A stretch of 64,000 nucleotides of DNA, from the NCBI RefSeq assembly GCF_003544855.1, contig NZ_CP032101.1:1364001-1428000 (forward strand). The letters are read 5' to 3'. The notes beneath the pieces are model-generated. The model ran no database searches. It had not been told where the DNA came from and saw only the letters and a program-made list of their open reading frames with translations. Below are positions 14,675 through 64,000 of the stretch, in pieces. The position numbers and the translations under genes are program-made. The DNA is from Malaciobacter marinus. Its GTDB lineage: Bacteria; Campylobacterota; Campylobacteria; Campylobacterales; Arcobacteraceae. Positions within the stretch are counted from its first letter, which is position 1, and each line of letters opens with the position of its first letter.

Positions 14675-15973
14675 TTACTTCCTTACAATTGAAAATGATA
14701 AATCTATAATTTCTTTATGAGATTTTATATAATTATTTAAATCTTCAAGTTCCAAACTTTGAATTTTTTCTAACTCTTTTTGAGGATAATCTTGCTTTAA
14801 TCCCTTATAATAAAGATTAAATGCTCTATTTAATCTTTGTGATAATGTTTCAGTTCTTAAAGGCTCACTTCCTGTTAAAAAGTTTTTAGCTGCATCAAGT
14901 TCTTCTTGAGTAACACCTTTTTGTACAAAATCTTTTACAATTTCTGCAACTAATTCTCGTGCTTCTTTTGCACTTTCTAATTTTGTTTGTAAGTATCCAG
15001 TAAAATATGAGTGTGACTTATTTATTGATACATATCCATAAGCACTATATGCCAATCCTCTTTTTACACGTATTTCTTCCATTAATCTTGAACCAAAACC
15101 AGAACCACCTAAAATAAATGAAGCAACTTTTGCTTTGTAGTTTTCTTCATCTTGTGCTTTTACATTAAATTTACTTCCAAAGTATATATATGCTTGTTCT
15201 GTTGGTTTTTTAAGTTCTTTGATAATTGGTTTTGCAGTTATTTCAACTTTCTTTAACTCTTTTTTACCTTTTGCAGGCATTGATTTTAATAAAGTTTGGA
15301 TTTTATTTTCAAGCTCTTTAAACTCAATATCTCCACCAACAACAATAATTAAGTTTGAAAGATTGAATGTACTATCGATAAACTTTTTGACATCAGTTAA
15401 TTTTATATTATTAATAGATTCAATTGTTCCAGAAGTAGGGTGTTGCAATACCGTGTCTTTAAATAAGATATCTTTTAATTGATTTTTTGCAACATAATCA
15501 TAATCATTTTGTTTTCTCTTTAAAGAACCAATATGAATAGTTTTGATTTTTTCTACTACATTTTTATCATAGTTTGGATCTTTTAATAATTTTTTTAGAA
15601 GTTTAAATGCTTTTTCATTTACTTCTTTTAGAGAAGACAATTCAATAACAAATGTTTCAAAACCACTTGCAACATTTAATGAAATTGCATTACTTTCTAA
15701 TTCTGAAGCAAATTTTGTTGAACCTAGTTTTTTAGTACCTTCATTTAATAATTTAGCTGAAAATGAAGCAATACCATTTAAATTCTCATCTTGTATTGAA
15801 CCTGAATTTTGAAAAACAAGTTGCATATTTAAAATTGGCAGACTTGTTTGTTTCTCAAATATTACAGGAATTTTTGTATTATTAATCTCTATATGTTTTA
15901 TTTGTGCGCTCATTAAAATTCCTTGTAAACTAAGTAGTGTAATAACACTTTTAAATAGTTTTATTGCTTTCAT
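14675..15973 (-). CDS. M16 (insulinase/processing-peptidase) family protein lacking the zinc motif
   Basis: This 432-residue protein has a signal peptide and the two-lobed M16 fold. The conserved [21 protein letters not shown] of the second domain is clear near residue 290. In active M16 enzymes the first domain has HxxEH (GLAHFLEHMLFKGT-like); here the equivalent segment is [14 protein letters not shown], with no His or Glu ligand. It is probably the non-catalytic partner type that works with an active subunit elsewhere, in the periplasm. It is one base from the GluRS-like gene and just downstream of mqnC. Confidence 0.85.
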
Positions 15974-46024: not shown

Positions 46025-46687
46025 ATGTTTGAAAGTGTTTATTTTACTCACCCTGGATATGTAAGAGAATCAAATGAAGATTCATTTTTTATTGATGATA
46101 AAAATTGTATATGGATAGTTTGTGATGGAATGGGAGGTCATAATGATGGGAGTTTTGCAAGTCATTTAATTACGGATTTATTTGAAGAGTTAGTTTTAAC
46201 TAACTCTTTTAGCAAAAATGTTGAGATAATTCAAAATCAATTAATAAAAGCCCATCAACTTTTACAAAAACAAATAAAAAAACCAAATAATATTATTGGA
46301 ACAACGGTGGTACTTTTATATATTTATGAAAATAGGGCAGTGTGCTTTCATTGTGGAGATAGTAGATGTTATAGTTATACAAATATTCTTAAATATCACA
46401 CAAAAGATCATAGTAAACTTTTAAATGGTAAGAAAGTATTGACATCTGCAATTAGTGCACCAAGTAAAAGTTTTATACTTGAAAAAAGTTCTTTTTATAT
46501 TGATGAAATAAATCGTTTTTTATTATGTTCTGATGGTCTTTATGATTTTATTAGTGAAGATACAATTTCATATTTTATGAAACAAAAAGAAATAAAAAAA
46601 AGTATGGATATATTAATCTCAAATATCTTAAAAACAAAAGCTCAAGATAATATAACAGCTATTATAATAAATAAGGTATTAAAATGA
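46025..46687 (+). CDS. pppA: PP2C-family Ser/Thr phosphatase (PppA type)
   Basis: The 220-residue protein has the PP2C metal-binding motifs: RESNEDSFF near residue 15, CDGMGGHNDG near residue 34, HCGDSRCY near 113 and LLCSDGLYD, plus a final AQDNITAIII. It would reverse phosphorylation by the adjacent kinase, as PppA does in the Pseudomonas T6SS threonine-phosphorylation pathway. It overlaps the kinase gene by four bases. Confidence 0.93.
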   Translation: MFESVYFTHPGYVRESNEDSFFIDDKNCIWIVCDGMGGHNDGSFASHLITDLFEELVLTNSFSKNVEIIQNQLIKAHQLLQKQIKKPNNIIGTTVVLLYIYENRAVCFHCGDSRCYSYTNILKYHTKDHSKLLNGKKVLTSAISAPSKSFILEKSSFYIDEINRFLLCSDGLYDFISEDTISYFMKQKEIKKSMDILISNILKTKAQDNITAIIINKVLK

Positions 46688-47541
46688 TGAATGACCTTTT
46701 GAAAAACATTAAAAAAACATCAAAAAAACAAGATTCACAAATAAAAAACATATTTAATAAAAGGTATGTGATAAAAGATAAAATAGCACAAGGTGGTTTG
46801 TGTGATGTTTTTTTAGTAGAAGATATATATGATTTTCATTTTAATACAAACTCAAATATTGTTATAAAACTTCCAAATGCAACTACTATAAAAAATAAAG
46901 ATATCTCATCATTGCTTTTTAGTGAATATAAATTTTTAAGAGAATTAAATCATCCAAATATTGTAAAAGTATATGATTTTGGGATTGATAAAAAAACTAA
47001 AATTCCTTATTTGATTTTAGAGTATATTGAAGGGAAACTATTAAATGATATTTCGATTTTTAATATGAATAAAAGTTTAAAAATAGATATTTTCAAAACA
47101 CTTTTAAATACAGTTAAATATATACATTCAAAAAATATAATACATGCTGATATTAATCCTTCAAATATAATAATTGATAATAACAATAAGATAATATTAA
47201 TTGATTTTGGAATTTCTTTGAGTTGTAATAATAACTCAATTCATCTAGACTATAATAAAGTAAAAGCATATAATCCAAAATATAGTGCACCAGAAATTAT
47301 AAATGGAGGAATTCCTACTGAAAAATCAGATATATATTCTACTGCAGCTATTGTTTTTGAACTTTTTACATTAAAAACACCTGTTATTAGAAATAATAAA
47401 ATCATTCTTGATAATTCACATACAATTCCTTTTTATCTAAAAAAGTGGCTTAATAGGAATTTATCTGCTGATTCTTCAATAAGAACTATAAATTTCAATC
47501 AATATTATAATTTTTTTACAAATTTTTTACATTTTAACTAG
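46684..47541 (+). CDS. ppkA: T6SS-linked Ser/Thr protein kinase (PpkA-like, cytosolic)
   Basis: The 285-residue protein is a bare kinase domain: Gly-rich loop IAQGGLCDVFLVED, catalytic Lys in IVIKLPN, catalytic loop HADINPSN and DFG in LIDFGIS. The catalytic loop reads HAD rather than HRD, so it is a non-RD kinase with the catalytic Asp kept. It lacks the membrane helix and periplasmic sensor domain of Pseudomonas PpkA, so it should be cytosolic. Its likely substrates include the FHA protein's partners. It ends ~70 bases before hcp. Confidence 0.9.
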   Translation: MMNDLLKNIKKTSKKQDSQIKNIFNKRYVIKDKIAQGGLCDVFLVEDIYDFHFNTNSNIVIKLPNATTIKNKDISSLLFSEYKFLRELNHPNIVKVYDFGIDKKTKIPYLILEYIEGKLLNDISIFNMNKSLKIDIFKTLLNTVKYIHSKNIIHADINPSNIIIDNNNKIILIDFGISLSCNNNSIHLDYNKVKAYNPKYSAPEIINGGIPTEKSDIYSTAAIVFELFTLKTPVIRNNKIILDNSHTIPFYLKKWLNRNLSADSSIRTINFNQYYNFFTNFLHFN

Positions 47542-48232: not shown

Positions 48233-51109
48233 ATGTCTCAAATAGCAAATATAAATAAAAATTTACGAAAAGAAATAACACAAAGCATAAAATCAAGAAT
48301 CAAGTTGTTAAACTATAGAAGTGACCTGCCAGATATACTAAATGAAAGCTTGAGTGTATATAAACTAAATGGATATAGTAAAGTAAATAAACCTTATGAA
48401 TTTGAAGTAATATTTGTAAGTGAAGAGTTTATACAAATAGAAGATATAGTAGATACAGATGTAGAACTAATAATTCAAGATGAAATAAATCCTTTAGATA
48501 AAAAAACAATATTTGGAAAAGTCTATGAAGCAAGTGAAGATAGTGTAGTAGCAAGAAAACATCTGTATAAAGTAAAAATAGTATCGCCCTTGTATTACTT
48601 AGGATTAAATAATAGATATGAGATATATCATGAAAGAAAAGTAAGTACAATTTTTAGTGAAATACTAAATAGATATAATCAACTGCTAAATATAAATGTA
48701 GATGTAAAAATAGATATAAAAAATGAAGTAACAAGAGAGTATATAACTCAATATAATCAAAGTGATTTGGAATTTCTTACAATGCTTTGTGAAGAAGAGG
48801 GATATAGCTTTATAGTAGAATACTCTTCAAATAATCCATATAATATAATTTTGTGTAACTTAAATGAACATGCAATAATAAATAGCTATAGCGCAGTAAG
48901 CCAATTTAATCATAGTAAAAAATTTAGTGCAACAAATATAATAGAAGATTATTATGATAAAAATAGACCAAGCTTAGAATATAAAGTGCAAACAGGTGCA
49001 GCAATAACTTCTAGCATAAAAGATAATCAATCAACAACTCAATTAAGAACAGATATAAAAAGAAATAATCTAAGAGATAAACTAAATGTACTTGATGAGA
49101 GCTTGTATAAAGATTTGGATAAATATAATAAAATAGAAGCAAAAAGAGAATATGTAAAATCAAATATAATATATGCAACAAGCCAAGAAGTAGTAATAAA
49201 TGACTCTTTGTGTATAAAATTAGAAGATGAGGCTGCAAAAAAAGTATTTGATGTAATAGTAATAGAAGTAAAATATAATGGAATTTTTCCAAATGCATTG
49301 GATGAATATATACAAAATATAAATGAAAATAAAAAACATGAACTTGAATATGAAGTAGAATTTACTTCAATACCAAAAGATATAGAGTATGTTCCACCAT
49401 ATACAGTAATAAAACCAAAAATAAACTCAGTACAAACAGCAATAGTAGCAAGTAGTAATAGTAATACAAAAGAAGATGTAAATACAATAGATGTAGATGA
49501 ACAAGGAAGAATAAAAGTATTGTTTCACTTTGAAGAGAATAAAACAATATCATGTTACTTAAGATACTCAAACTTCTTTGCAGGAGATAACTATGGAGCA
49601 CAATTTCTGCCAAGAGTAAATAGTGAAGTAATAGTAAGCTTTGTAAATGGAGATATAGATAAACCAATAATAATAGGAAGCTTGTATAATGGTGAGAATA
49701 AAGTACCATATAACCTTCCAAAAGATAAAACAAAGAGTTATATCAAAACAAACTCAATGCCACAATATGAACATAAACAAGGATATAATGAGATACTGTT
49801 TGAAGATAAACAAGGTGAAGAGTTATTATCATTTAGAGCACAAAAGAATCTAAAAACACATGTATTAAATGATGAATATAAACATGTAGAGAATAACTCA
49901 AAACTATTAGTAGAAAATGATAAAGAAGAGACAATCCAAAAAGACTCAATTATAACAGTTGGAGAAGAAGAAAGAAAGAGTATAAAAGCAAATAAAATTT
50001 TAACTGTTGAGAAAGAATCTATTACTACTGTTAAACAAGATTGTGAAGAGCATATATTAGAAGATTTTATTACTATTGTTAAAGATGATTTAAAAACAAT
50101 TGTAGAAAATAATGTGATAAAACGTATAAAAGGTACAAAAACAGAATATATAGAGCAAGATGTAAAGAAAAAATACTTACAAAATATGTTTTTACAAATT
50201 GGTAAAGATTATAGGTTAGATGTAATAAATTCATATCATTTAAAGGCTAAAACTGTAAAATACCAAGCAAAAACAATTGAATTAGAAGCAACTAATGGAA
50301 TTAGTTTAAAATGTGGAGGAAATGTCTTAACAGTTGATACATCTGGAATATTTTTAAAAGCAGGAACTGTTGATACAACATCATCAAATGGTGGAGTAAG
50401 TGCAAAAGATGTACCAAAAATAGAGATACCAAAACCACTATATGAAAAAGTAAGAGTAGTGGAATTAATTCCTACAATTAAAAAACAAGATGATATAACA
50501 CAAGTTTTAGAGTATGAAGCTATTGTTGAGAAGTTTTATAATGGTGTTTGGAGTAAAACTACTGATTTAACTCCTGCTCAAGAAGCTCAATTACAATGGT
50601 ATTTTATAAAAAACAATGATGAAGCTGATACTGATATTTTAACAGATAATCCAACAAATGATAATATTACTATTACTGGATTAAAAATGAGTGTTTCTTT
50701 AGAAGAAGAAAATATTTATAAAGTAGGACATGCACACTGTTTTGTAAGTAATAGTGAAGAAGAGGGATATACACAAACACAACTTGTAAGATATTTAGAA
50801 GTTGAAGATATAGTTAGCTCTCATGTATCACAAGAAGAGGGTGAGTGTATAGCTGTATTAAATGTAGAAGAGCCAAGGCAAGAAGAGTTAGCGCAAATAA
50901 GATGGCAAATAGAAGATACACAAAGAGAAAAATATAATGGAAAAGAGACAATCATACATAATCTAAAAGAAGAAAAAGTTCATGAGATTAATTTCTTAGC
51001 ATATATTGATGGAAAAATTCAAGATGGTGCTAATACAAGATTAACTTATGATGAAAGAAAAAATCAAAAAGTAAAGAATAATACAAAAACAAATAAACAG
51101 GAAAAATAG
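48233..51109 (+). CDS. vgrG: T6SS spike protein VgrG (TssI) with C-terminal extension
   Basis: The 958-residue protein has the gp27-like domain in the first ~400 residues (GYSKVNKPYEFEVIF, then YNQSDLEFLTMLCEEEGYSF). A gp5 OB-fold follows (VDEQGRIKVLFHFEEN to KPIIIGSLYNGEN). Next comes a repetitive Lys/Glu/Val needle region and, after about residue 725, an extra ~230 residues not part of the core VgrG. The extension looks beta-rich, with Ile/Val/Thr strands, and could be an adaptor for the effector encoded downstream. It starts 99 bases after hcp behind its own gap. Codon use changes along the gene: the first ~1750 bases use ATA and ACA heavily, while parts beyond 50000 use ATT and ACT. Confidence 0.93.
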   Translation: MSQIANINKNLRKEITQSIKSRIKLLNYRSDLPDILNESLSVYKLNGYSKVNKPYEFEVIFVSEEFIQIEDIVDTDVELIIQDEINPLDKKTIFGKVYEASEDSVVARKHLYKVKIVSPLYYLGLNNRYEIYHERKVSTIFSEILNRYNQLLNINVDVKIDIKNEVTREYITQYNQSDLEFLTMLCEEEGYSFIVEYSSNNPYNIILCNLNEHAIINSYSAVSQFNHSKKFSATNIIEDYYDKNRPSLEYKVQTGAAITSSIKDNQSTTQLRTDIKRNNLRDKLNVLDESLYKDLDKYNKIEAKREYVKSNIIYATSQEVVINDSLCIKLEDEAAKKVFDVIVIEVKYNGIFPNALDEYIQNINENKKHELEYEVEFTSIPKDIEYVPPYTVIKPKINSVQTAIVASSNSNTKEDVNTIDVDEQGRIKVLFHFEENKTISCYLRYSNFFAGDNYGAQFLPRVNSEVIVSFVNGDIDKPIIIGSLYNGENKVPYNLPKDKTKSYIKTNSMPQYEHKQGYNEILFEDKQGEELLSFRAQKNLKTHVLNDEYKHVENNSKLLVENDKEETIQKDSIITVGEEERKSIKANKILTVEKESITTVKQDCEEHILEDFITIVKDDLKTIVENNVIKRIKGTKTEYIEQDVKKKYLQNMFLQIGKDYRLDVINSYHLKAKTVKYQAKTIELEATNGISLKCGGNVLTVDTSGIFLKAGTVDTTSSNGGVSAKDVPKIEIPKPLYEKVRVVELIPTIKKQDDITQVLEYEAIVEKFYNGVWSKTTDLTPAQEAQLQWYFIKNNDEADTDILTDNPTNDNITITGLKMSVSLEEENIYKVGHAHCFVSNSEEEGYTQTQLVRYLEVEDIVSSHVSQEEGECIAVLNVEEPRQEELAQIRWQIEDTQREKYNGKETIIHNLKEEKVHEINFLAYIDGKIQDGANTRLTYDERKNQKVKNNTKTNKQEK

Positions 51110-51110
51110 T

Positions 51111-52211
51111 ATGCAAAATATAATAAAAACCCTACTAATAATATGTATAACAACAGTAGTATTAAATGCACAAGAATTAAAAAAAAGTGAATATGATATA
51201 AACCAATGCATAAAAATAGAATATACAAAAGAAGATATAAAAAAATATAAAAAACTAATACAAGAGGGTGAACTACAAGGATATAGTTGTGCAGGTATAT
51301 ACTATGCAAGACAAGGTAACTTTGATGAAGCAATAGATTACTTTAATAAAGGAAAAGAAAAAGGAAGTATAGAATCATATGCACAATTAGGAAGTCTATA
51401 TTTAAGTTTTTTACATGATAATAAAAAAGCAGTTAAAAACTTTAAAGTAGCAGCAAATGCAGGACATGGAAAATCAGCACATAATTTAGGTGTGTATTAT
51501 TATAAAAACTTTAAATATGATGAAGCATATAAATGGTTTATGAAATCATATGAAACAGGAGATTTAAATTCACTATTATCAATTGGATTGATGTATGATC
51601 AACAAAAAAAGTATACAGAATCAATAAAGATATATAAAAAAGTTGGAGAATTGGGTGAACCAGAGGGATATCGTAGTTTAGGAATTTTATTTATAAAAAA
51701 TAAAGATGTAAAAGATGATAAAAAAGGAATAAAGTATTTAAAGAAATGTTATGAAATGGGATATGGATTATGTGCAGCAGGACTTGGCACATACTATGAG
51801 GAAAATAAGAAAGATTACAAAAAAGCAGAAGACTGGTATAAAAAGGGATTTGAACTTAAAAATGAAGAATCAATAAATAGATTAGGTTTTATGTATTTAA
51901 AAGATATAAATAATCCTAAAAAAGCAATTTATTGGTTTAAAGAAGGATATAATAAAATTAATTGTGAAAGTTGTGCTTTTGAAGTAGGAAATATATATGC
52001 GAAGAATTTTAAAGAGTATAATAGAGCTATAAAATGGTACAAATTTAGTGCTTTACAAAATGATTTAGATTCAATATTTAATATAGCATATACATATGAA
52101 AATGACTTAAAAGATAAGAAAAATGCAATTATTTGGTATAAAAAAGCTGCAAAACTTGGTGATAATGGAGCAAAAAGAAGACTAGAAAAATTAGGAGTAT
52201 CATATGAGTAA
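51111..52211 (+). CDS. Secreted Sel1-repeat protein, candidate effector immunity protein
   Basis: The 366-residue protein begins with a signal peptide (cleavage probably after VLNA at residue 20) and then has about eight Sel1/TPR-like repeats of ~36 residues (for example YNRAIKWYKFSALQNDLDS). It is periplasmic. It sits one base after vgrG and overlaps the phospholipase gene by eight bases. In Pseudomonas, immunity proteins of the Tle5b phospholipase are Sel1-repeat proteins, so immunity is the natural guess. A chaperone or adaptor role is the alternative. Confidence 0.82.
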   Translation: MQNIIKTLLIICITTVVLNAQELKKSEYDINQCIKIEYTKEDIKKYKKLIQEGELQGYSCAGIYYARQGNFDEAIDYFNKGKEKGSIESYAQLGSLYLSFLHDNKKAVKNFKVAANAGHGKSAHNLGVYYYKNFKYDEAYKWFMKSYETGDLNSLLSIGLMYDQQKKYTESIKIYKKVGELGEPEGYRSLGILFIKNKDVKDDKKGIKYLKKCYEMGYGLCAAGLGTYYEENKKDYKKAEDWYKKGFELKNEESINRLGFMYLKDINNPKKAIYWFKEGYNKINCESCAFEVGNIYAKNFKEYNRAIKWYKFSALQNDLDSIFNIAYTYENDLKDKKNAIIWYKKAAKLGDNGAKRRLEKLGVSYE

Positions 52212-54948
52212 TGATATAACTAAAGGAAATGCATTTCATAAAGAGGGTGAAGTAGTACACTTAAATGAATTTTGTACCAAAGAGAATGAAGCAATAGAAG
52301 AAGATATAAAAACTAGAATAGCTTATATGGTTATATCAAATGAAGATATAAAAGAGTTATTGAATTCAACTGATGATAAACAAATAATCTTAGATAAAGT
52401 AATAGAAGAATATAAACCTTATTTGATAAAAGCTGTAGAAAAAGAGAGTACTAAAAATAATAAACCCTTAATTTTCGATGATTTACGTGGTGTAAATGAA
52501 GAGATAATTGATAAAAAATTGGTAAAACTTTGTACCACTCAATTGTATAACTCAAAATCTTATGGAAGTGTATTAAAAGCAAAAAAGTATCACCATGCAT
52601 ATAAAAAAGTACTGCAAAAAAATCTAAAAGAAAATCTTGAAAAGAAAAGTACTTCTGCTTTGACTTTTACTAAAGATAGTTGTAATGAAATTATAAAAAA
52701 AGAAGTAAATAAAACTTCAAAAAAATTAAATAAAAATGAACAAGCATATATAGTACTATCTATGCCATATGTTTATAATATAAAAGATGGTTCTAAAACA
52801 AAAGAGTTAGAACTAATATCTTATGAAGAGAAAATAATAGCCTCTTTTATGCCTGAGTTAATAATCGAATATGGAGTATTTTTTGATGGAACAAATAATA
52901 ATATATATAATATAGATTTTTATAAAAACTTTATGGAGTTTTTAAAAGAGCCTGCAAAAGATATAGAAGATAAAATAAAAAATAGAGATGGCTTAAGACG
53001 TTCAAAAGATGAATTAGAAACATTAGATAAAAAAACTATTCAATACCACATACTATTAACTGATAACCCAGAGTTTACAAAAAAAACAAAAAAAATAATT
53101 ATAAATCAAATGAACAACGCTTCAATAAGATATTTTGATAATAAATCGGTTTTTATTGTAGGCAAGGATGAAATTATAACTACTAAAAAAGCAGAAAAAG
53201 ATTCAAAAAAAGTATTTGATTATTTACTTGATGTAAAAAATAGTAAAAAAGATGCCCAAGAAAAAACTATTTCTGATTATATAATAAAAGAAATACTTCC
53301 AGATGATAATGAAGATAGTAGCTTTACAAATGGTGAAACAAACATAAGTAGATTATATGAATTATATGATGGAGATGATGTAAAGAAAAACAAAGATGCT
53401 CTTCCAAATACTAGATTTAAACTTTATGAAAGTGGTTCTGGAACTTTTAATCCTTTTATACAAAAAGATTATGAAGATGACTCTGTAGTTGGACTGGGTC
53501 TTGGAATGGGAGAGAGTGGAGTAATAGCACATTGTCTATACTCTTGTATAAAAATGGTTGAACAATTAAGAAAAGATTCAATAACTTATATGGATGAACT
53601 AGTTTTAGATGTATTTGGATTTAGTAGAGGTTCTACTAGTGCAAGACATTTTATTTGTACACTTTTGAAAAATACACAATTAGTAAAAAATGAAAAAAGA
53701 GAATATACAATAAAAACAAAAGATAGTAAAGATATTTTTTATGAATTTTTTGGAAGTAATGGTTATGTAAGAATTGGAAGTAAGACTATTTTTAATCCAC
53801 TTAGAACAGATATAGAGTATATTAATCCAAATAACAATAATCATAGAGTTTATAATCCTTTTTATAAAGAAAAAGAGATAACAATTGAATCAATCTCTTT
53901 TAGATTTGCAGGATTGTTTGATACAGTAACACATTATGGAATTATGCAATCAAATGATTCTGATGATTTAAATATAAACTTTTTTGAAAATGATAATAAT
54001 AAAAAAGTAGGGCATGTAGTTCATCTAATGGCAGATGATGAGTTTAGATATAACTTTGAAGCATACTCTATCTTTACAAATATAAATAAGCACTATTATA
54101 AAGAAAGTACAGAAAAAAGAGAAGATGGTGGTGCAAGATTTGAAGAGTTTTATGTTCCTGGAGCACATGCAGATGTAGGAGGGGGATATAATGAAGAAAA
54201 TGAATTGGTTTATCTTGGTGATTTTATAATAGAAGAAAAAAAACTACCTGATTACTTAAGAAAAAATATACAAAAGTGGAATAATAAATATAATTGGTTA
54301 AAAAATAATGCATTAATACAAAAAGATTCAAAAAAAGAAATAAAAGAAATGAAAGAAAAACAAAAAGAAAGAGAAAGTGAAATAGAGAAATTAAAAAAAG
54401 AACTAGAAAAAGAAAATAAATCAAAAAATGAGAAAGAGAAACTAAAAGATGATATTGAAAAATTGGAAAATAAAGAAGGTTTTTATTACTATATAAAAAA
54501 TGTATATAATTTAAATACAAGAGAAGATATTTGGGGAAACTCTTCAAATTGGGAATATCATTTACATTTATATATGTATAAACCAAAAGTATCAAATAAA
54601 TATGAACATGTAGCTATGAGATTAATGTATGATAAAGCTATATATGTAGATTCAAAAACACAAAAAAATAGAAAAGATGAGTTTGAGATGGTTCCTTTTG
54701 GTAAATTTGATCATAGTTTTAAAGATGATGAAACTTTAAAAGAAACATATAAAGCACTTAAAGAGCACAAAGTTTTAAAAAAAGAGAATACAAAAATATA
54801 TAAAGAGTTAAAAAACAACTATTTACACCACTCTTCACAAGTTGGAAACTTTGTAAATAAACCTTCAAATGAGAAAAAAGATGAATATGAGCTATATGGA
54901 AAGAGAGTTATTTATTCTACTGAGGGCAAAGAGTTTACTAGAGGGTGA
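52204..54948 (+). CDS. tle1: T6SS phospholipase effector, DUF2235/Tle1 type
   Basis: The 914-residue protein carries the DUF2235 alpha/beta-hydrolase domain. YGVFFDGTNNNIYN is near residue 222, the nucleophile elbow GFSRGS is near residue 472 (Ser in GxSxG), the acid is probably in LFDTVTHYG near 572, and the PGAHADVGGGY motif near 652 supplies the His. This matches Tle1-family lipases delivered by VgrG to attack membrane phospholipids of rival cells. An unusual N-terminal ~210 residues and an inserted Lys/Glu coiled coil (near 705-760) precede the C-terminal region. The gene follows vgrG and the Sel1 protein. Confidence 0.9.
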   Translation: MSNDITKGNAFHKEGEVVHLNEFCTKENEAIEEDIKTRIAYMVISNEDIKELLNSTDDKQIILDKVIEEYKPYLIKAVEKESTKNNKPLIFDDLRGVNEEIIDKKLVKLCTTQLYNSKSYGSVLKAKKYHHAYKKVLQKNLKENLEKKSTSALTFTKDSCNEIIKKEVNKTSKKLNKNEQAYIVLSMPYVYNIKDGSKTKELELISYEEKIIASFMPELIIEYGVFFDGTNNNIYNIDFYKNFMEFLKEPAKDIEDKIKNRDGLRRSKDELETLDKKTIQYHILLTDNPEFTKKTKKIIINQMNNASIRYFDNKSVFIVGKDEIITTKKAEKDSKKVFDYLLDVKNSKKDAQEKTISDYIIKEILPDDNEDSSFTNGETNISRLYELYDGDDVKKNKDALPNTRFKLYESGSGTFNPFIQKDYEDDSVVGLGLGMGESGVIAHCLYSCIKMVEQLRKDSITYMDELVLDVFGFSRGSTSARHFICTLLKNTQLVKNEKREYTIKTKDSKDIFYEFFGSNGYVRIGSKTIFNPLRTDIEYINPNNNNHRVYNPFYKEKEITIESISFRFAGLFDTVTHYGIMQSNDSDDLNINFFENDNNKKVGHVVHLMADDEFRYNFEAYSIFTNINKHYYKESTEKREDGGARFEEFYVPGAHADVGGGYNEENELVYLGDFIIEEKKLPDYLRKNIQKWNNKYNWLKNNALIQKDSKKEIKEMKEKQKERESEIEKLKKELEKENKSKNEKEKLKDDIEKLENKEGFYYYIKNVYNLNTREDIWGNSSNWEYHLHLYMYKPKVSNKYEHVAMRLMYDKAIYVDSKTQKNRKDEFEMVPFGKFDHSFKDDETLKETYKALKEHKVLKKENTKIYKELKNNYLHHSSQVGNFVNKPSNEKKDEYELYGKRVIYSTEGKEFTRG

Positions 54949-56436: not shown

Positions 56437-56503
56437 TAGATTTAGGGTATTTTAATAAAGCATATGTTATAGTTTGGAAATTATAGTAACCATTTTCAGC
56501 TAC

Positions 56504-56600
56504 ATTTAAGTGATAACACTATAAAATTAATTTACAAACAAACACAAAAACCTTTCGTCGGGTTGTTTAAATCTCAAAGAAAAACTGCAATTTTTCTTTG
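56504..56600. other. Candidate integration-junction palindromes (Xer-type site?)
   Basis: Two near-perfect palindromes sit in the gap between the T6SS locus and the viral-type genes. The first (56504-56527) has AAGTG and CACT arms around ATAA. The second (56575-56600) is CAAAGAAAAA-CTGCAA-TTTTTCTTTG, with a perfect 10-bp arm. As I recall it, the Helicobacter difH site recognised by XerH has a similar GAAAA-CTGCAG-TTTTC core. I do not see a T-run that would make the second a normal terminator. The other end of the element is outside the window, so a duplicated att cannot be checked. Confidence 0.3.
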
Positions 56601-56611
56601 GGGCGTTTGTA

Positions 56612-56884
56612 TTACTTTTTATTTCTATTCATTCCTAGAAAATTAATTAAATCCTCATCATCTAAGTTTAACAAAACTTTCTTTAAAACATCGCTTCTTT
56701 TGACTCCATAAAGCTTTTTTATCACTTTAGATTTTCGCTGTATTCTGTCAACTTCCCACGCTTTGAAAGTAAGTGTTATACCTATATTTTTCTTGGCATT
56801 GTTTAGTTTTCTTGACCTTTCTATCTCTTTTTCTTTTAGATATCTAAGTCTTTCATCTTGACTAGAAAAATTTAACTCGTCCAT
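56612..56884 (-). CDS. Small ribbon-helix-helix-like DNA-binding protein
   Basis: The 90-residue basic protein has, from about residue 34, a beta strand (NIGITLTFKAW), a helix (EVDRIQRKSKVIKKLYG) and a second helix (KRSDVLKKVLLNL). This is the order of a ribbon-helix-helix repressor or replication-control protein. The N-terminal ~30 residues are a charged helix. AAGG precedes the ATG. Three perfect 22-bp repeats start 97 bases upstream, a likely target for an RHH dimer. It is the leftmost gene of the viral-type element. Confidence 0.6.
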   Translation of the reverse strand: MDELNFSSQDERLRYLKEKEIERSRKLNNAKKNIGITLTFKAWEVDRIQRKSKVIKKLYGVKRSDVLKKVLLNLDDEDLINFLGMNRNKK

Positions 56885-56980: not shown

Positions 56981-57046
56981 AATATAACCTAGGTTCTTAG
57001 AGAATATAACCTAGGTTCTTAGAGAATATAACCTAGGTTCTTAGAG
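56981..57046. repeat. Three perfect 22-bp tandem repeats with a palindromic core (iteron-like)
   Basis: Three head-to-tail copies lie at 56981-57002, 57003-57024 and 57025-57046, identical to the base. Each contains the perfect palindrome AACCTAGGTT (5 bases into the unit) followed by CTTAGAG. A period of 22 equals about two helical turns, so the palindromes face the same side of the DNA. This is the form of replication iterons or of a cooperative operator array. It stands between the RHH-like gene and the GC-rich structured segment. Confidence 0.85.
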
Positions 57047-57147: not shown

Positions 57148-57309
57148 ATGAAACAAAAAGGAGAAACGCACCCCTTAGGGGTTGCTTACTCCCTCGCTTG
57201 CGCTCGGTCGCGTCCTAATACATTCGCTTGGGCTCACTCCTTAGGACGGTTAAAAGGTGTTCGCCCATGGCTCACATTGTTTGAACACTGCGCCCAGGGG
57301 CTTGTGTGA
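57148..57309 (+). CDS. Doubtful 53-residue GC-rich frame
   Basis: A + strand ATG opens a 53-residue frame with Arg, Trp, Ala and Pro content very unlike its neighbours (for example SLGRLKGVRPWLTLFEHC). It spans exactly the hairpin-rich segment and has no ribosome-binding site, so it may simply be open by chance in structured DNA. I list it because open frames through GC-rich islands in such AT-rich DNA are unusual. Confidence 0.15.
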   Translation: MKQKGETHPLGVAYSLACARSRPNTFAWAHSLGRLKGVRPWLTLFEHCAQGLV

Positions 57310-57375
57310 GAAAGGATATTTATGCTCCATGCGTCGCAAAATCGGGATTTTTTGAGGGCTAAAGCCCAATATTGT

Positions 57376-57397
57376 GTTTGCTAAAGCAAACTTTTTT
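57376..57397 (+). terminator. + strand intrinsic terminator in the structured segment
   Basis: GTTTGCT-AA-AGCAAAC forms a perfect 7-bp stem followed by six Ts. Only the + strand has the T-run, so it implies + strand transcription through 57100-57390 opposite to the structural genes. The GGGCT-AA-AGCCC hairpin lies just upstream and shares the GCTAAAGC core. Confidence 0.6.
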
Positions 57398-57579
57398 AAG
57401 ATTGTATCTTCTAGGGAAGATATGAAAAAACTTCATATCTTCTCTATATGGCTTTTTTAAACTAAAGGTTAGTATTGATATTAATTAGGATAGTTTTAAA
57501 GAAATAGAGCCATTTCTGTTCGATTGTGAGTATATTTCAAATAGTTTTTTATTCCATATTGTTTATGTTTGAGATTTTT

Positions 57580-57631: not shown

Positions 57632-58027
57632 TTATTCTTTTAAACTGTTTATAGTTTCTTTTGCTTCTTTTGTAGTTTGAATTACTGCATTATCAATCTT
57701 AATATCTTCTCTTGTTAATGCCTTACATTCGCCTTTTGCTTGTTTTATAGTGTAGATTAGTTGTAGGCTTTTCGCTCTTTCTCTAAGCATAATTTCCTCT
57801 TCTTCATCTGCGCTATAGATACCAAGTGTCATAACTTTACCAACAACATTTTTAGCAAGATTTTTATTTTCTTCATTGCTTAATTGTGTTCTTATCTCTT
57901 TGATTTCGTGAATAAGTGCTTCACAACTCATCGCATAGTCTGTTGCTTCAACTGTTGCAATTGGTTGTTTTGCACAACCAATCATAACAGTTGCTGCAGT
58001 TATAGCTATAAAAATATTTTTCTTCAT
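57632..58027 (-). CDS. Viral-element lipoprotein, unknown
   Basis: With the ATG at 58027 (GGAG seven bases upstream) the protein is 131 residues and begins MKKNIFIAITAATVMIGCAK, a lipoprotein signal with lipobox MIGC. A frame seven residues longer exists but has no ribosome site. The mature part is mostly helical (EALIHEIKEIRTQLSNEENK) and acidic. Lipoproteins at the lysis end of phage operons can act like Rz1 spanins; there is no paired Rz-type gene recognised, so this is only a suggestion. It is the last gene of the long - strand operon. Confidence 0.7.
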   Translation of the reverse strand: MKKNIFIAITAATVMIGCAKQPIATVEATDYAMSCEALIHEIKEIRTQLSNEENKNLAKNVVGKVMTLGIYSADEEEEIMLRERAKSLQLIYTIKQAKGECKALTREDIKIDNAVIQTTKEAKETINSLKE

Positions 58028-58066
58028 TTTGCTCCTTTTAAGCAGCAATTTTATAGAAAAATTGTT

Positions 58067-58655: not shown

Positions 58656-59246
58656 TTAGCCAACCATATTTGGATTATTATCTTTAAATACTGCGTATTC
58701 CATTGCATTGTAATATTTACTTTGTGTTGTTGCACCTAAAACAGAATTGAAATATTTTTTATAATATTGCCATCTTCCAATTTTTGTCTTAGGTATTGCG
58801 GCCGGTACTCTAAAATATAATAGTCTTGCAAATACGATAGATGTCATCGGTGATTTTCTTAGGTCTGTATATTGTACTTTTGCAATATCTACACCTAAAA
58901 AATTTTTAATTTTTTGTCTAAGCTCTTTGAATATGTTTGCCATAAAATGGTTTTTAACATCTGTAAAAGTAGGGCGGTCAAATTGTGTTAAACCCTCGCC
59001 ATATTCCTTTGAATAATCCGTGGCTTTTCCATTCCTAGACTCTACGGCAATCGTTTCAGCCAATAAAAGCTTTGCTTCTTGTTCTGTTTTAGGCGATATT
59101 ACTTTGCATGCCATTGTAATTTTAGCCATTATCTCTAAATCGCCACCAATAAGCCCGTAAAATTTGTATTCTTTTGAGTGCATTTTTACACCTCCCAAAA
59201 TTAGACCTAAAGCCAAAAGGGCTTTAAGCTTGTTTTGTTGCTTCAT
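58656..59246 (-). CDS. Lysozyme/transglycosylase-like muralytic enzyme
   Basis: The 196-residue protein has an N-terminal hydrophobic stretch (ALLALGLILGGVKM) that could be a membrane or signal-arrest anchor, then a lysozyme-fold domain. The likely catalytic glutamate is E69 in ETIAVESRNG (pattern AxESxxG of lytic transglycosylases), followed by EYGEGLTQFD. The later SIVFARLLYFR and GRWQYYKKYFNS segments resemble the second half of phage lysozyme domains. In tailless phages such enzymes sit in the virion to open the cell wall or act at lysis. It is coupled to its neighbours by overlaps. Confidence 0.7.
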   Translation of the reverse strand: MKQQNKLKALLALGLILGGVKMHSKEYKFYGLIGGDLEIMAKITMACKVISPKTEQEAKLLLAETIAVESRNGKATDYSKEYGEGLTQFDRPTFTDVKNHFMANIFKELRQKIKNFLGVDIAKVQYTDLRKSPMTSIVFARLLYFRVPAAIPKTKIGRWQYYKKYFNSVLGATTQSKYYNAMEYAVFKDNNPNMVG

Positions 59247-59464: not shown

Positions 59465-60226
59465 TTATACCTTTTTATATCTTTTTATTAATGTAATATC
59501 TAACTTTAATCTATCATTCTCATAAAGTTTACTAAATACCTGCAGTCTTTTATTCTTTGTGTTTTTGAGTATTATATTTTTACTTATATCTTTGTGTTGT
59601 ACATCTAAACCTGTAGCACAATAATTAGTAGTATTTACATAAACACCTTGTAACATAACATCAATTGTAAAGCCTCTTAAATAAAAATTTGACATTGTAC
59701 TTCTAGGACAAATAAAAATCTCAACTTCATCGCAATCTAAAATAGTACTAATATATTCAACTCTAGAGGTTAAAGTAACAGAAATGTAACTATACTTATC
59801 TTTATTAGTGTCTAATGGATGAAAAATCTTATCTAATGCACTTAGTAGAGCAGGGCTAAAATTTTGAACATTTTGCAAATCTTGAACATTTTGCAAATTA
59901 TTTAAATTGTTTATTTCTCCTATTTTGTTTACTTGTGGGCTTGGTAATATTTCAAAGTTATCACTTCTTGAACTTTGCCCAAATACTAACATTCCATTTT
60001 CAACTGCATTACAATTTACATAAATTTCTGTTACATTGCTTGTCTTTAATGCAAAGTTTTCTTTTATTGGTATTTCGTCCGCTTGGTTACTTCCTAATCG
60101 AACAGTAACATTAGCACCAGCTGGAGCGCTAAGTAAAATTAAATAATTTCTACCACCTGAGATTGGAAAGTTATTTATTTTTTCGCTTATTGGTACTCTT
60201 GCTATGTTATAGTCAACTGTACTCAT
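59465..60226 (-). CDS. Beta-rich protein, candidate penton/spike of the virion
   Basis: The 253-residue protein has an N-terminal beta domain (GRNYLILLSAPAGANVTVRL, like a jelly-roll strand pair). A short heptad-like hinge follows, with two tandem LQNVQ units (LQNVQDLQNVQNF, near residues 111-123), and then a C-terminal beta domain. A base, a flexible or trimeric hinge and a head domain is the architecture of vertex proteins in PM2-like phages. The identification is by architecture and neighbourhood only. Its ATG overlaps the stop of the upstream gene by four bases. Confidence 0.5.
   Translation of the reverse strand: MSTVDYNIARVPISEKINNFPISGGRNYLILLSAPAGANVTVRLGSNQADEIPIKENFALKTSNVTEIYVNCNAVENGMLVFGQSSRSDNFEILPSPQVNKIGEINNLNNLQNVQDLQNVQNFSPALLSALDKIFHPLDTNKDKYSYISVTLTSRVEYISTILDCDEVEIFICPRSTMSNFYLRGFTIDVMLQGVYVNTTNYCATGLDVQHKDISKNIILKNTKNKRLQVFSKLYENDRLKLDITLIKRYKKV
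59863..59898. repeat. Two 18-base tandem repeats inside the spike-like gene
   Basis: GAACATTTTGCAAAT occurs at 59866-59880 and again at 59884-59898, an 18-base period that keeps the frame and encodes the repeated LQNVQ(D/N) heptad-like unit. Confidence 0.7.
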
Positions 60227-60535: not shown

Positions 60536-60880
60536 CTAATCCTTCACAAATTGATAAACTATATTGTTTCCTAATTTGCCAATAGGGACAGTGTGGTTTT
60601 TATAATCCCTATTTTTTCCTATTCTTAAGATTGGCATGTTAAAAGAAAACATAAGTTTTTCTACTTTTTTATGAAATTTTAGAAAAGCTTTATTTTTTTT
60701 CTTTGTATAAGCATATAAAGCCCAAATAAAGCCACTATCAAACATAAATACATAAGTTGTATTTGGATTTGATGGTTTATCTGCTATACAAAAACCATCT
60801 TTTATAAATGGTTCTTGAGGGTCTGCTTGACCCTCTTTTACTAACTCTTCTAAAAAATCATAATTATCTAAAAAGTACAT
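60536..60880 (-). CDS. 114-residue soluble protein, unknown (faint GNAT-like end)
   Basis: This mixed alpha/beta protein (MYFLDNYDFLEELVKEGQAD at the start) lacks a membrane helix, unlike most of its neighbours. The second half (FLKFHKKVEKLMFSFNMPIL, then a KLGNNIVYQF end) is faintly like the C-terminal part of acetyltransferase-fold proteins seen among phage internal proteins. That likeness is weak. It shares one base with the upstream gene. Confidence 0.55.
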   Translation of the reverse strand: MYFLDNYDFLEELVKEGQADPQEPFIKDGFCIADKPSNPNTTYVFMFDSGFIWALYAYTKKKNKAFLKFHKKVEKLMFSFNMPILRIGKNRDYKNHTVPIGKLGNNIVYQFVKD

Positions 60881-61566: not shown

Positions 61567-62517
61567 CTACTTTTCTAAAATATTTGTTTTTTGAACTGTA
61601 TCAGTTAAGATATGTACATTGTTTGTTTCCCCTGGTTGTTTCTCAACATCTAAAACAACTTCTAAAGTGTTATAGCTGTTTATAGTGTCTAGTAAATCAG
61701 TCATACGACCTCTAATTGTAAAATCAACCACATAGCAACCTTTTAATAAATTGTATGCTTCGGGTTTAAACTCAAATACGTTTTTTGCCCTTAATGCGTT
61801 CGCGTCAATATCAACAAAAGTTGTATTACCAGACTTTATCTTTACACCTTTTATCATGTTGTCAACTCTTTTACCATCTACGGTAGAAACGATTTGAATT
61901 GACTTGTAAAGCTTTTGTGTAGGTAAGCTAATAGTTAGCTCATTTGTTGTACTAGTAACTTCTTTTAGTAAACTAGTTGAGTTAAAGAAACTAATTGTTT
62001 CATTTGCATTTCTTTTGTAATTAATCAAAGAAGATGACCAAACATCTAATTTTGCATTATTTACAGTTATACCGCTACCAATTGAACTATCTCCACCCCA
62101 GTTTATTAACAAGTCAAAAGTTGTAAATAATGCAGTATTTAAGATAGTATCGTGCGGTCTGATAGTGTTAAACATACTAAAAGGTATAACAGCATAAACA
62201 AAACTTTCTTTTCCAGCTCCCTCACTTGTATCTATTGAATGCATACCTCTTTGAGATGTACCAATAATATTATCTAAGTAAAGTTTTTTACTCGGAATTT
62301 GTTTAATAGTTTGATTACCATTTGCAATTACTTCAAGTTGATTTATTAACCCAAATAAAGCCTCATCTTTAAAAGTTGCACCAGCTGCATTATCATGATT
62401 TACTGTTAATTTTAATAGTAAATATTGTGTATGATAATTTCTACTTAATTCAATTCTCTTTTGAGAACTTGGACTATAAAGCGCGTGATTTTCGTATCTC
62501 TCATATAATCTTGCCAT
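61567..62517 (-). CDS. Candidate double-jelly-roll major capsid protein
   Basis: The 316-residue protein is soluble, has no signal or membrane helix, and is composed mainly of alternating beta-strand segments (YLLLKLTVNH, FTTFDLLINWGG, TNELTISLPTQKLYKSIQIV, YVVDFTIRG) with short helices. That is the composition of two tandem upright jelly rolls. The length lies within the range known for PM2/autolykivirus-type capsid proteins (about 270-350). The N-terminal RKxIELSRNYHTQYL-like region would lie at the capsid inner surface. Its genomic setting (packaging ATPase, tiny membrane proteins, muralytic enzyme, no tail genes) strongly supports it. I cannot confirm the fold without a structural comparison. 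The ATG overlaps the preceding stop. Confidence 0.65.
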   Translation of the reverse strand: MARLYERYENHALYSPSSQKRIELSRNYHTQYLLLKLTVNHDNAAGATFKDEALFGLINQLEVIANGNQTIKQIPSKKLYLDNIIGTSQRGMHSIDTSEGAGKESFVYAVIPFSMFNTIRPHDTILNTALFTTFDLLINWGGDSSIGSGITVNNAKLDVWSSSLINYKRNANETISFFNSTSLLKEVTSTTNELTISLPTQKLYKSIQIVSTVDGKRVDNMIKGVKIKSGNTTFVDIDANALRAKNVFEFKPEAYNLLKGCYVVDFTIRGRMTDLLDTINSYNTLEVVLDVEKQPGETNNVHILTDTVQKTNILEK

Positions 62518-62794: not shown

Positions 62795-62880
62795 CTTATT
62801 TGATTGAGTTCGGCAAGGACTTATTTTTGCGAGGGTTTTAAAGTGTGCTTGGGGAAATGCACTTTAAAGCCTTTTTTTTT
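62795..62880 (+). ncRNA. Candidate ~86-nt antisense/regulatory RNA between ATPase and capsid genes
   Basis: The transcript would run from about 62795 to the intrinsic terminator at 62834-62880, where GGTTTTAAAGTG pairs with CACTTTAAAGCC (12 bp, one G-U), loop of about 14 bases, followed by nine Ts. It lies on the + strand opposite the leader of the - strand capsid transcript and ends on the ATPase stop codon. The 5' part is single-stranded-looking (GGTCTTATTTGATTGAG). It could act in cis on capsid-gene expression or in trans. It is not any RNA family I recognise. Confidence 0.6.
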
Positions 62881-63508
62881 AGCTTAAAATTTGTAGGTCT
62901 TTTTCAGTTGTTTTTATAATCTCCTTTTTTTCATCTTCAATTCTCAAAAACTCAAACTTATTAAGGTCAGCAATCATTTCAGCATAACTTGAATCGAGTA
63001 GGGCTTTTATATATTTTTTGTCATTTGGCTCTCTTAATCTACTAAAAATAAATATATCTGTTAAAGCTGTTAAATTTCTGCTTATATTAGCGGGTCTTCT
63101 GCTTGTAGTAATGATATCTATTCTGTTATGTCTACCATACTGTACAAGTTTATTAAAATAGCTCTTCTTGTCTGTTCTAGTATCAAAAAACATATCTATT
63201 TCATCTATTACAAAAGTTATATTTTTCATTTTAAATATTGTTTCTGCTAGTTCTTCAGCTTCATCAATAGTATTTACGACTAATTCTAATTTATGCTTCA
63301 TAAATAGTTTATAATTATCTCTTTTCGTTATAAACTTGTGAAACTTAGATACACTCGTAAATACTAATCTTCTAATATTTTCTTCATACTGAAATCTAGG
63401 ATCCAGGATAATGGTAGGCTTATCTGTTAAGATAGCTAACTTCTCTGTAAGAGTAGTCTTACCATATCCTTTATGACCAATGATTGTATAAATCTTGTTT
63501 TGTATCAA
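62879..63508 (-). CDS. HerA/FtsK-superfamily (A32-like) genome-packaging ATPase
   Basis: The 209-residue protein has Walker A GHKGYGKTTL (residues 11-20), Walker B TFVIDEID (98-105), a sensor-type IITTSRRPAN stretch and a C-terminal IFIFSRLRE segment. This is the compact layout of the packaging ATPases of PRD1/PM2/autolykivirus-type viruses. Filamentous-phage Zot proteins belong to the same superfamily but normally have a membrane helix and a longer C-terminus, which this lacks. It overlaps the upstream gene by four bases and ends where the + strand RNA terminator begins. Confidence 0.85.
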   Translation of the reverse strand: MIQNKIYTIIGHKGYGKTTLTEKLAILTDKPTIILDPRFQYEENIRRLVFTSVSKFHKFITKRDNYKLFMKHKLELVVNTIDEAEELAETIFKMKNITFVIDEIDMFFDTRTDKKSYFNKLVQYGRHNRIDIITTSRRPANISRNLTALTDIFIFSRLREPNDKKYIKALLDSSYAEMIADLNKFEFLRIEDEKKEIIKTTEKDLQILS

Positions 63509-64000
63509 GATTGAACCTCTTCTTTTTTTGTAAATCTTGCTTTTAACTTTGTGAAGTATGTAGGAATATTATTAAATCCAATAACACTATCAACAACTAA
63601 TGCAGTTCCACTTAAAGCAAGTAGGGCAGTGCTAAATTTTTCAGAACTTAGTGTTCCCTCTGCTCTTGCTTTATCTACTGTATTAACTGCGCTGTTTTTA
63701 AATAGCTCTTGTGCGATTGGATTTAACAATGCTTCTTGCCCCTCTCTTTGTTGCTTTATACCTTGTAAAACTGATAATCCAGTTGTGATAATATCTTCAC
63801 TTTCATTTACTGTTGTTTTATGTGCAGCTTTTGCATTGTTATTAATTTTAGGCTCTTTATTTACTCCTAAGATAATATCAATTAAAAAAGGTTTACTTCT
63901 ACCTTTTAAGCTGTTAAAAGAGTATTGACTTTGTAAAGGCTCTGCAAGTTTTGCAAGTTCTTTATTTGTCATCTTTTCAAGTTCTGCCCTTGTCTTTGTT
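63505..64000 (-). CDS. Protein cut by the window edge, SAP-like N-part, hydrophobic middle
   Basis: The frame is open to the window end, so the start is unknown; the internal ATG at 63972 has no clear ribosome site. The visible end reads KTRAELEKMTNKELAKLAEP, then a helical region resembling a SAP-type DNA-binding turn (MTNKELAKLAEPLQSQYSFN, then a SKPFLIDIILG helix). It has a hydrophobic stretch (ALLALSGTALVVDSVIGF) and a basic tail. It is coupled to the ATPase by a four-base overlap. Function unknown; it could link DNA to the packaging complex. Confidence 0.6.
   Translation of the reverse strand, partial: TKTRAELEKMTNKELAKLAEPLQSQYSFNSLKGRSKPFLIDIILGVNKEPKINNNAKAAHKTTVNESEDIITTGLSVLQGIKQQREGQEALLNPIAQELFKNSAVNTVDKARAEGTLSSEKFSTALLALSGTALVVDSVIGFNNIPTYFTKLKARFTKKEEVQS

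What the first reader, a model, noticed from the sequence alone, without database searches (positions are those of the whole stretch)
56981..57046. Three identical 22-bp iterons with AvrII-type palindromic cores
Perfect identity across three copies shows recent amplification or strong selection. The AACCTAGGTT palindrome per unit and two-turn spacing fit a cooperative DNA-binding protein; the RHH-like protein encoded 97 bases away is the obvious candidate. Adjacent hairpin-rich DNA makes a replication origin plausible for an element that may also exist as a free circle.
Basis: partly seen in the sequence, partly recalled or inferred. Interest (0 to 1): 0.65.

Follow-up and report, generated by a model that had tools for sequence, protein, structure and literature searches.

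The report
Switch-like repeats in a dormant virus
Three identical short DNA repeats sit in front of a small regulator-like gene in a dormant 9-kb bacterial virus, and related viruses keep the same layout with completely different repeat letters, which suggests a self-recognising control switch.

Summary
The repeats are real: three exact 22-bp units at 56981-57046, each with AACCTAGGTT; 0 of 500 shuffles give such an array. They lie in an 8,950-bp provirus of tailless-phage type (double jelly-roll capsid protein, packaging ATPase, Rep-like gene) inserted at the chromosomal dif site beside xerH. Relatives keep the layout: tandem palindromes roughly 80-160 bp before a small ribbon-helix-helix-like (RHH) gene, then dif. 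The letters differ: AACCTAGGTT, GGTCATTTTGACC, GAGCAAAATTTGCTC, CCCGTCGAAAACGACGGG. In three of five RHH elements an exact TATAAT follows the last palindrome. Two elements whose Rep proteins are 68% identical over 161 residues carry unrelated palindromes, so the repeats do not follow Rep. Best reading: operators of an autoregulating RHH repressor, diversified like phage immunity systems. Against it: one element (G161) has the repeats but no recognisable RHH gene, and the RHH fold is only weakly supported. An origin role is possible but gained no support: three DnaA-box patterns were absent. Binding and replication were not testable here.

The parts
56471..56487 (-). Right attachment core (attR), ACTATAATTTCCAAACT, dif-like; its partner is at genome C1:1429421, beyond the window
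   Evidence: (L005 471 and 9421); resembles the printed A. butzleri difH
56572..56603 (.). Hairpin between the RHH gene and attR
   Evidence: (I18)
56612..56884 (-). Small RHH-like protein gene (90 aa), last gene before attR
   Evidence: fold only weakly supported
56981..57046 (.). Three exact 22-bp repeats with AACCTAGGTT cores (centres -150, -128, -106 from the RHH start codon): proposed operators
57150..57310 (.). G+C-rich, hairpin-forming non-coding DNA (one 300-bp bin at 42% G+C; the other bins of the element are at 24-38%)
57314..57333 (-). Conserved non-coding motif CGCATGGAGCATAAATATCC; its degenerate form is in 3 of 104 family genomes, exactly those with the element
57412..57446 (-). 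Conserved hairpin GAAGATAT..ATATCTTC; two of its pairs change on both sides among the three family elements
57632..58030 (-). Small lipoprotein-like gene (by eye); G161 has a homologue at the same place
58656..59246 (-). Probable lysis enzyme (PHROG 3108, itself of unknown function)
59465..60226 (-). Conserved protein, probably of the virion (inference from place)
60536..60880 (-). Conserved 114-aa protein (68% and 61% identical in the two family relatives)
61567..62517 (-). [quoted passage not shown]
   Evidence: Pfam P2_C and P2_N, both below cut-off; best Foldseek matches are PRD1, PR772 and STIV capsid entries
62879..63508 (-). Packaging ATPase
63505..64000 (-). 190-aa conserved protein (runs past the window end to C1:1428077); two small genes and then the Rep-like gene (C1:1428723-1429334) lie beyond it

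Best explanation
The three repeats are tandem operators for the RHH-like protein encoded 96 bp away. Dimers bind the palindromes on one face of the DNA, two helical turns apart, next to or over the -10 box of the gene's own promoter, and shut it off (autorepression). In the excised circle the same strand runs from this promoter through the RHH gene and the joined attachment site into the Rep-like gene and the virion genes, so the same repressor would hold down virus multiplication and incoming copies with matching operators. Shown here: the repeats, their conserved place with changed sequence, the gene set, and insertion at dif. Inferred: binding, repression, read-through and immunity.
For: Seven elements had both dif-like ends found (G000, G034, G057, G161, G355; G286; G282). 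Five of the seven have an RHH-like gene. Four of those five (G000, G034, G057, G286) have exact tandem palindromes by detector, each with 0 of 500 shuffles. The fifth (G282) has two adjacent 22-bp units that I counted by eye as 16 of 22 identical. Palindrome centres lie 158.5 to about 80 bp before the RHH start codon (which counted G286 from its second codon). Exact TATAAT begins 10-12.5 bp after the last centre in 3 of 5 (G034, G057, G286; chance about 3%, 3% and 0.5%). The full operators occur at one place per element in the five elements scanned, apart from single matches with 2 mismatches (10-mer) or 4 mismatches (15-mers) in G000, G057 and G161. The G034 and G057 Rep pieces are 109/161 identical while their palindromes are unrelated; their RHH proteins are 38/87. 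The predicted DNA-facing strand positions of the RHH proteins differ (assignment by analogy with CopG and Arc, recalled).
Against: G161 has three exact palindromes at the same place but no recognisable RHH gene. In G355 a 32-bp repeat array precedes a small ORF that is not RHH-like. G282 failed the detector even at 75% identity, where 3 of 300 shuffles passed. The RHH fold was not confirmed: AlphaFold pTM 0.31, no solved RHH structure found, and a profile match to three recalled RHH sequences in the right register had 9% probability. The generic promoter scan found no clear excess in four regions. In the window's own element only TATATT, 4 bp from the last centre, is present; G282 and G161 have no exact TATAAT there.
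Confidence: 0.65

Rival explanations
1. The repeats are plasmid-type iterons of the circle's replication origin, bound by the Rep-like winged-helix protein; the RHH gene beside them is a copy-number regulator.
For: Conserved hairpin-rich non-coding DNA lies next to them in the three family elements. The Rep-like proteins resemble RepL, DnaD or O-type initiators, above a Pfam cut-off only in G161 and weakly in the others. G161 has repeats without RHH.
Against: The G034 and G057 Rep pieces are 68% identical yet their repeats are unrelated. Three DnaA-box patterns are absent from six regions. In three elements the palindromes abut a TATAAT.
Confidence: 0.2
2. Dual role: RHH-bound repeats regulate the promoter and also gate replication from the adjacent hairpin region.
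For: Repeats and conserved hairpin region are neighbours in the three family elements.
Against: No direct evidence; G161, G286 and G282 lack a perfect stem of 10 or more pairs there.
Confidence: 0.1
3. The repeats are a centromere-like site or an antitoxin operator (RHH as a ParG- or RelB-like protein).
For: Marginal RelB-antitoxin and NikA-like matches; tandem operators are typical of such systems (recalled).
Against: By eye no ParA-like or toxin-like partner lies beside the RHH gene in the ORF lists; no toxin-family or partition-family search was run.
Confidence: 0.05

Closest known systems
Vibrio phage NO16 group (Asemoviridae), temperate non-tailed phages
   Same: Double jelly-roll capsid protein, insertion at dif proposed to use host Xer, candidate DNA-binding repressors (PMC9966536, passages)
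   Different: Vibrio and XerCD; its two candidate repressor genes are transcribed opposite to the rest, here the RHH gene is on the same strand. No match of this capsid protein in the phage collection at E 0.01.
PhiCjT23-like phages of Flavobacterium
   Same: Double jelly-roll capsid and dif-flanked prophages with the replication gene near the start (PMC9719478, passages)
   Different: Single-stranded DNA phage; prophages of about 6-8.4 kb; the words repressor and iteron do not occur in its text; the nucleic acid type of the present element is unknown
CTXphi-type filamentous phages that exploit Xer
   Same: Use of dif and host recombinases (PMC2731167, passages)
   Different: Different capsid, replication and repressor (recalled)
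Arc, CopG and NikR ribbon-helix-helix regulators (recalled)
   Same: Predicted strand-helix-helix order; palindromic operators
   Different: Sequence match too weak for membership

Membership tests
[quoted passage not shown]
   Rows 1-31 of the 50 PDB rows listed are PRD1, PR772 and STIV capsid entries, the other 19 are capsid entries of large DNA viruses and mavirus, E 3e-10 to 5e-6 (that these are double jelly-roll proteins is recalled). Model pLDDT 55 and TM about 0.3, so fold class only. Pfam P2 domains below cut-off; no PDB sequence match.
Double jelly-roll tailless phages | Packaging ATPase | tested here: met
   PHROG 2666 E 3e-24 (annotated terminase large subunit) and Pfam AAA above cut-off; the FtsK/HerA assignment was not tested
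Elements integrating at dif by host Xer | dif-like direct repeats at both ends | tested here: met
   7 elements; 5 of 7 beside xerH, while G286 and G282 have a different, canonical-looking dif and no xerH hit in the stretch. Unoccupied sites beside xerH in 4 of 5 sister genomes of the genus (G078, G079, G080, G081); the G082 match is not beside xerH
Elements integrating at dif by host Xer | No integrase of its own | tested here: met
   No integrase match among the 16 gene products recognised in the window's element (five of them against PHROGs only); shorter unrecognised ORFs not scanned
RHH repressors | RHH fold | tested here: inconclusive
RHH repressors | Binding to palindromic operators | not testable with these tools
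   needs purified protein
Iteron plasmid origins | Repeats that follow the Rep protein | tested here: not met
   one pair of elements only: G034 and G057
Iteron plasmid origins | DnaA boxes near the repeats | tested here: not met
   three patterns, six regions, no match; a looser box could be missed
Iteron plasmid origins | Autonomous replication | not testable with these tools
   needs a replication assay
Prophage immunity systems | Lysogens exclude matching phage | not testable with these tools
   no phage in hand

The most novel reading that the evidence does not exclude
Insertion at dif is itself the lysis-lysogeny switch. The only RHH-controlled promoter sits at the element's last gene and reaches the Rep-like and virion genes only through the joined attachment site of the excised circle; host Xer recombination cuts or joins the operon, and the repressor-operator pairs have diverged into separate immunity groups.
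Probability: 0.25. Interest if true: 0.75.

Novelty: new variant of a known kind. Interest (0 to 1): 0.5.

Why it matters
The passages I read say little about how tailless phages that borrow host Xer recombinases control dormancy: the NO16 paper names two candidate repressors. Here one small layout recurs in several genomes of the window's phylum with the operator letters changed each time, giving a natural set of repressor-operator pairs for testing specificity and immunity. It also puts double jelly-roll proviruses at dif in this phylum, which none of the passages I read mentions.

Tried and rejected
Searches that found no relative: viral contigs with capsid, RHH and 114-aa queries and a DNA motif; phages with the 114-aa and capsid proteins; plasmids with the 114-aa protein, the hairpin DNA and the RHH protein. 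The one genome-contig scan found only the G034 copy. The repeat sequence itself, with up to 2 mismatches, occurs in 2 of 104 family genomes: the three exact copies in G000 and one isolated 2-mismatch site in G059. Rfam gave one match far below its gathering score. Chance array: rejected. tRNA-linked insertion: no tRNA in the stretches scanned. The RHH model was too poor for a fold search, so none was run. A small ORF across the joined attachment site is open in G034, G057 and G161 but not in the window's element, so it is not claimed. RHH hits in G356 and G039 were weak and not followed up. The tandem-palindrome detector (80% identity, 16 loci), written after the first arrays had been seen, gave hits at the proposed site in 5 loci and four other imperfect pairs, in L010, L034, L038 and L039; it found nothing in G424, G245, G282 or the G324, G463 and G486 pieces. 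Elements G418, G463, G486 and G324 are cut by contig ends, and for G424, G332 and G245 I did not find a pair of ends; these seven were left out of the seven-element count.

Full report
Observation. Three exact 22-bp units at 56981-57046 were confirmed, each with AACCTAGGTT. In the 2.9-Mb genome the exact 18-nt core occurs only there; at 3 mismatches one more single place appears, no more than the reversed control gives. Of 500 dinucleotide shuffles of the 300 bp upstream of the small gene, none had an exact tandem palindrome.

Context. The window ends inside an integrated element, and I read on in the same contig. Its 16 recognised genes lie on one strand: Rep-like gene, three small genes, ATPase, capsid protein, a run of conserved small genes, lysis-like gene, one more small gene, lipoprotein-like gene, then the RHH gene. 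No integrase was found among them. The capsid model (pLDDT 55, pTM 0.52) finds PRD1, PR772 and STIV capsid entries in rows 1-31 and capsid entries of large DNA viruses and mavirus in the other 19 rows listed; TM-scores are about 0.3, so fold class is supported but not detail. The viral library gives capsid proteins of phages GC1 and Wip1 among its best rows. Pfam P2 domains match below cut-off, and a sequence profile found no solved capsid. The element is bounded by 17-bp direct repeats 8,950 bp apart, and the far one is beside a xerH-like gene. The core resembles the difH printed for Arcobacter butzleri (PMC2731167, passages). Four of five sister genomes of the genus have the site next to xerH with no capsid, Rep or RHH hit in the 2.6-3.0 kb examined. 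The loose site pattern by itself is no more frequent than its control in most genomes, so the place beside xerH is what counts.

Relatives. Capsid search: 3 of 104 family genomes (G000, G034, G057). RHH search: the same 3 of 104. In the phylum, a capsid profile matched 9 of 397 genomes, an RHH profile 6 of 397, two of them weak, and the 114-aa profile 2 of 397 (G034 is not among its matches although it carries the gene). Family searches around three hits added G463 (3 of 44 match), G486 (2 of 141) and G245 (3 of 119). Seven elements have both ends: 8,950 (G000), 9,295 (G034), 9,161 (G057), 9,159 (G161) and 9,954 bp (G355); 9,503 bp (G286) and 10,608 bp (G282) from positions. G286 and G282 sit at a different, canonical-looking dif, so the elements seem to follow the host's own dif type (inference).

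The array in relatives. G034: GGTCATTTTGACC x3. G057: GAGCAAAATTTGCTC once, and two units that share GCAAAATTTGCTC. G286: CCCGTCGAAAACGACGGG x2. G161: GTGTCTGTTAGACAC x3. G282: one 24-bp palindrome and a neighbouring unit, 16 of 22 identical by my count. G355: a 32-bp repeat array of 2.4 copies. Spacings between centres are 22/22 (G000), 23/25 (G034), 23/23 (G057), 22 (G286) and 32/21 (G161). So 5 of 5 RHH elements show the layout, 4 by detector and 1 by eye only; but G161 has it without RHH, and G355 has a different small ORF. Both facts leave room for another binder. Controls: each of the six upstream regions gave 0 of 500 exact hits in shuffles; at 75% identity 2, 0, 0, 0, 1 and 3 of 300 for G000, G034, G057, G286, G161 and G282.

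Which protein? The G034 and G057 Rep pieces share 109 of 161 residues, yet the palindromes are unrelated; their RHH proteins share 38 of 87. The RHH C-terminal part is strongly conserved among the three family elements and the predicted strand is not, as expected if specificity changes. With five RHH sequences this is suggestive, not a test. G034's Rep has an in-frame stop in this MAG; the piece after it was compared.

Promoter. Exact TATAAT follows the last palindrome by 10-12.5 bp from its centre in G034, G057 and G286; the window has TATATT at 4 bp, and G282 and G161 have no exact TATAAT there. General promoter scans of four regions gave 4, 7, 1 and 6 sites against 5.6, 5.6, 1.0 and 4.0 expected. 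In G057 a T-rich hairpin after RHH (my reading) might stop read-through, which counts against the operon-through-att idea.

Origin. A conserved hairpin and the motif CGCATGGnGCATAAATnnCC mark the adjacent DNA; the motif is in 3 of 104 family genomes, exactly the carriers. This is a better origin candidate than the repeats. None of three DnaA-box patterns was found in six regions.

Literature. I saw passages of PMC2731167, PMC9719478, PMC11630473, PMC5894146 and PMC9966536; PMC9502842 was searched and held none of the six terms. By those passages, double jelly-roll phages at dif are known in Vibrio and Flavobacterium. Among the listings (15 of 262 papers listed) and 109 I saw no title or abstract beginning that describes one in the window's phylum; only open-licence papers are held, so this is no proof of absence in print.

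One count was mended by a further call: all 16 recognised gene products have now been scanned for an integrase.

Verdict. A real regulatory-looking array in what appears to be a new member of the dif-integrating tailless-phage kind; the operator role is likely but unproved.

Noticed in passing
29452-54948: Large type VI secretion cluster by gene order (by eye), with a VgrG-like protein (48233-51109), a protein kinase (46684-47541) and a Tle1-like phospholipase effector gene (52204-54948), ending 1.5 kb from the provirus
   Followed up: partly
L010:5549-6158: The Rep-like gene of the G034 element has one in-frame stop codon in this MAG assembly
   Followed up: no
L010:14620-14702, and joined ends: A small ORF runs across the attachment core in G034, G057 and G161, not in the window's element
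   Followed up: partly
L035:5230-5251 and 14733-14754; L040:7878-7898 with L053:6486: Two relatives in another bacterial family sit at a canonical-looking dif instead of difH
   Followed up: partly
L039:16308-16691: G355 element: 32-bp repeats before a 64-aa ORF with no clear family, in the place of the RHH gene
   Followed up: partly
57314-57446: Conserved non-coding hairpin and motif specific to the element, a possible replication origin
   Followed up: partly
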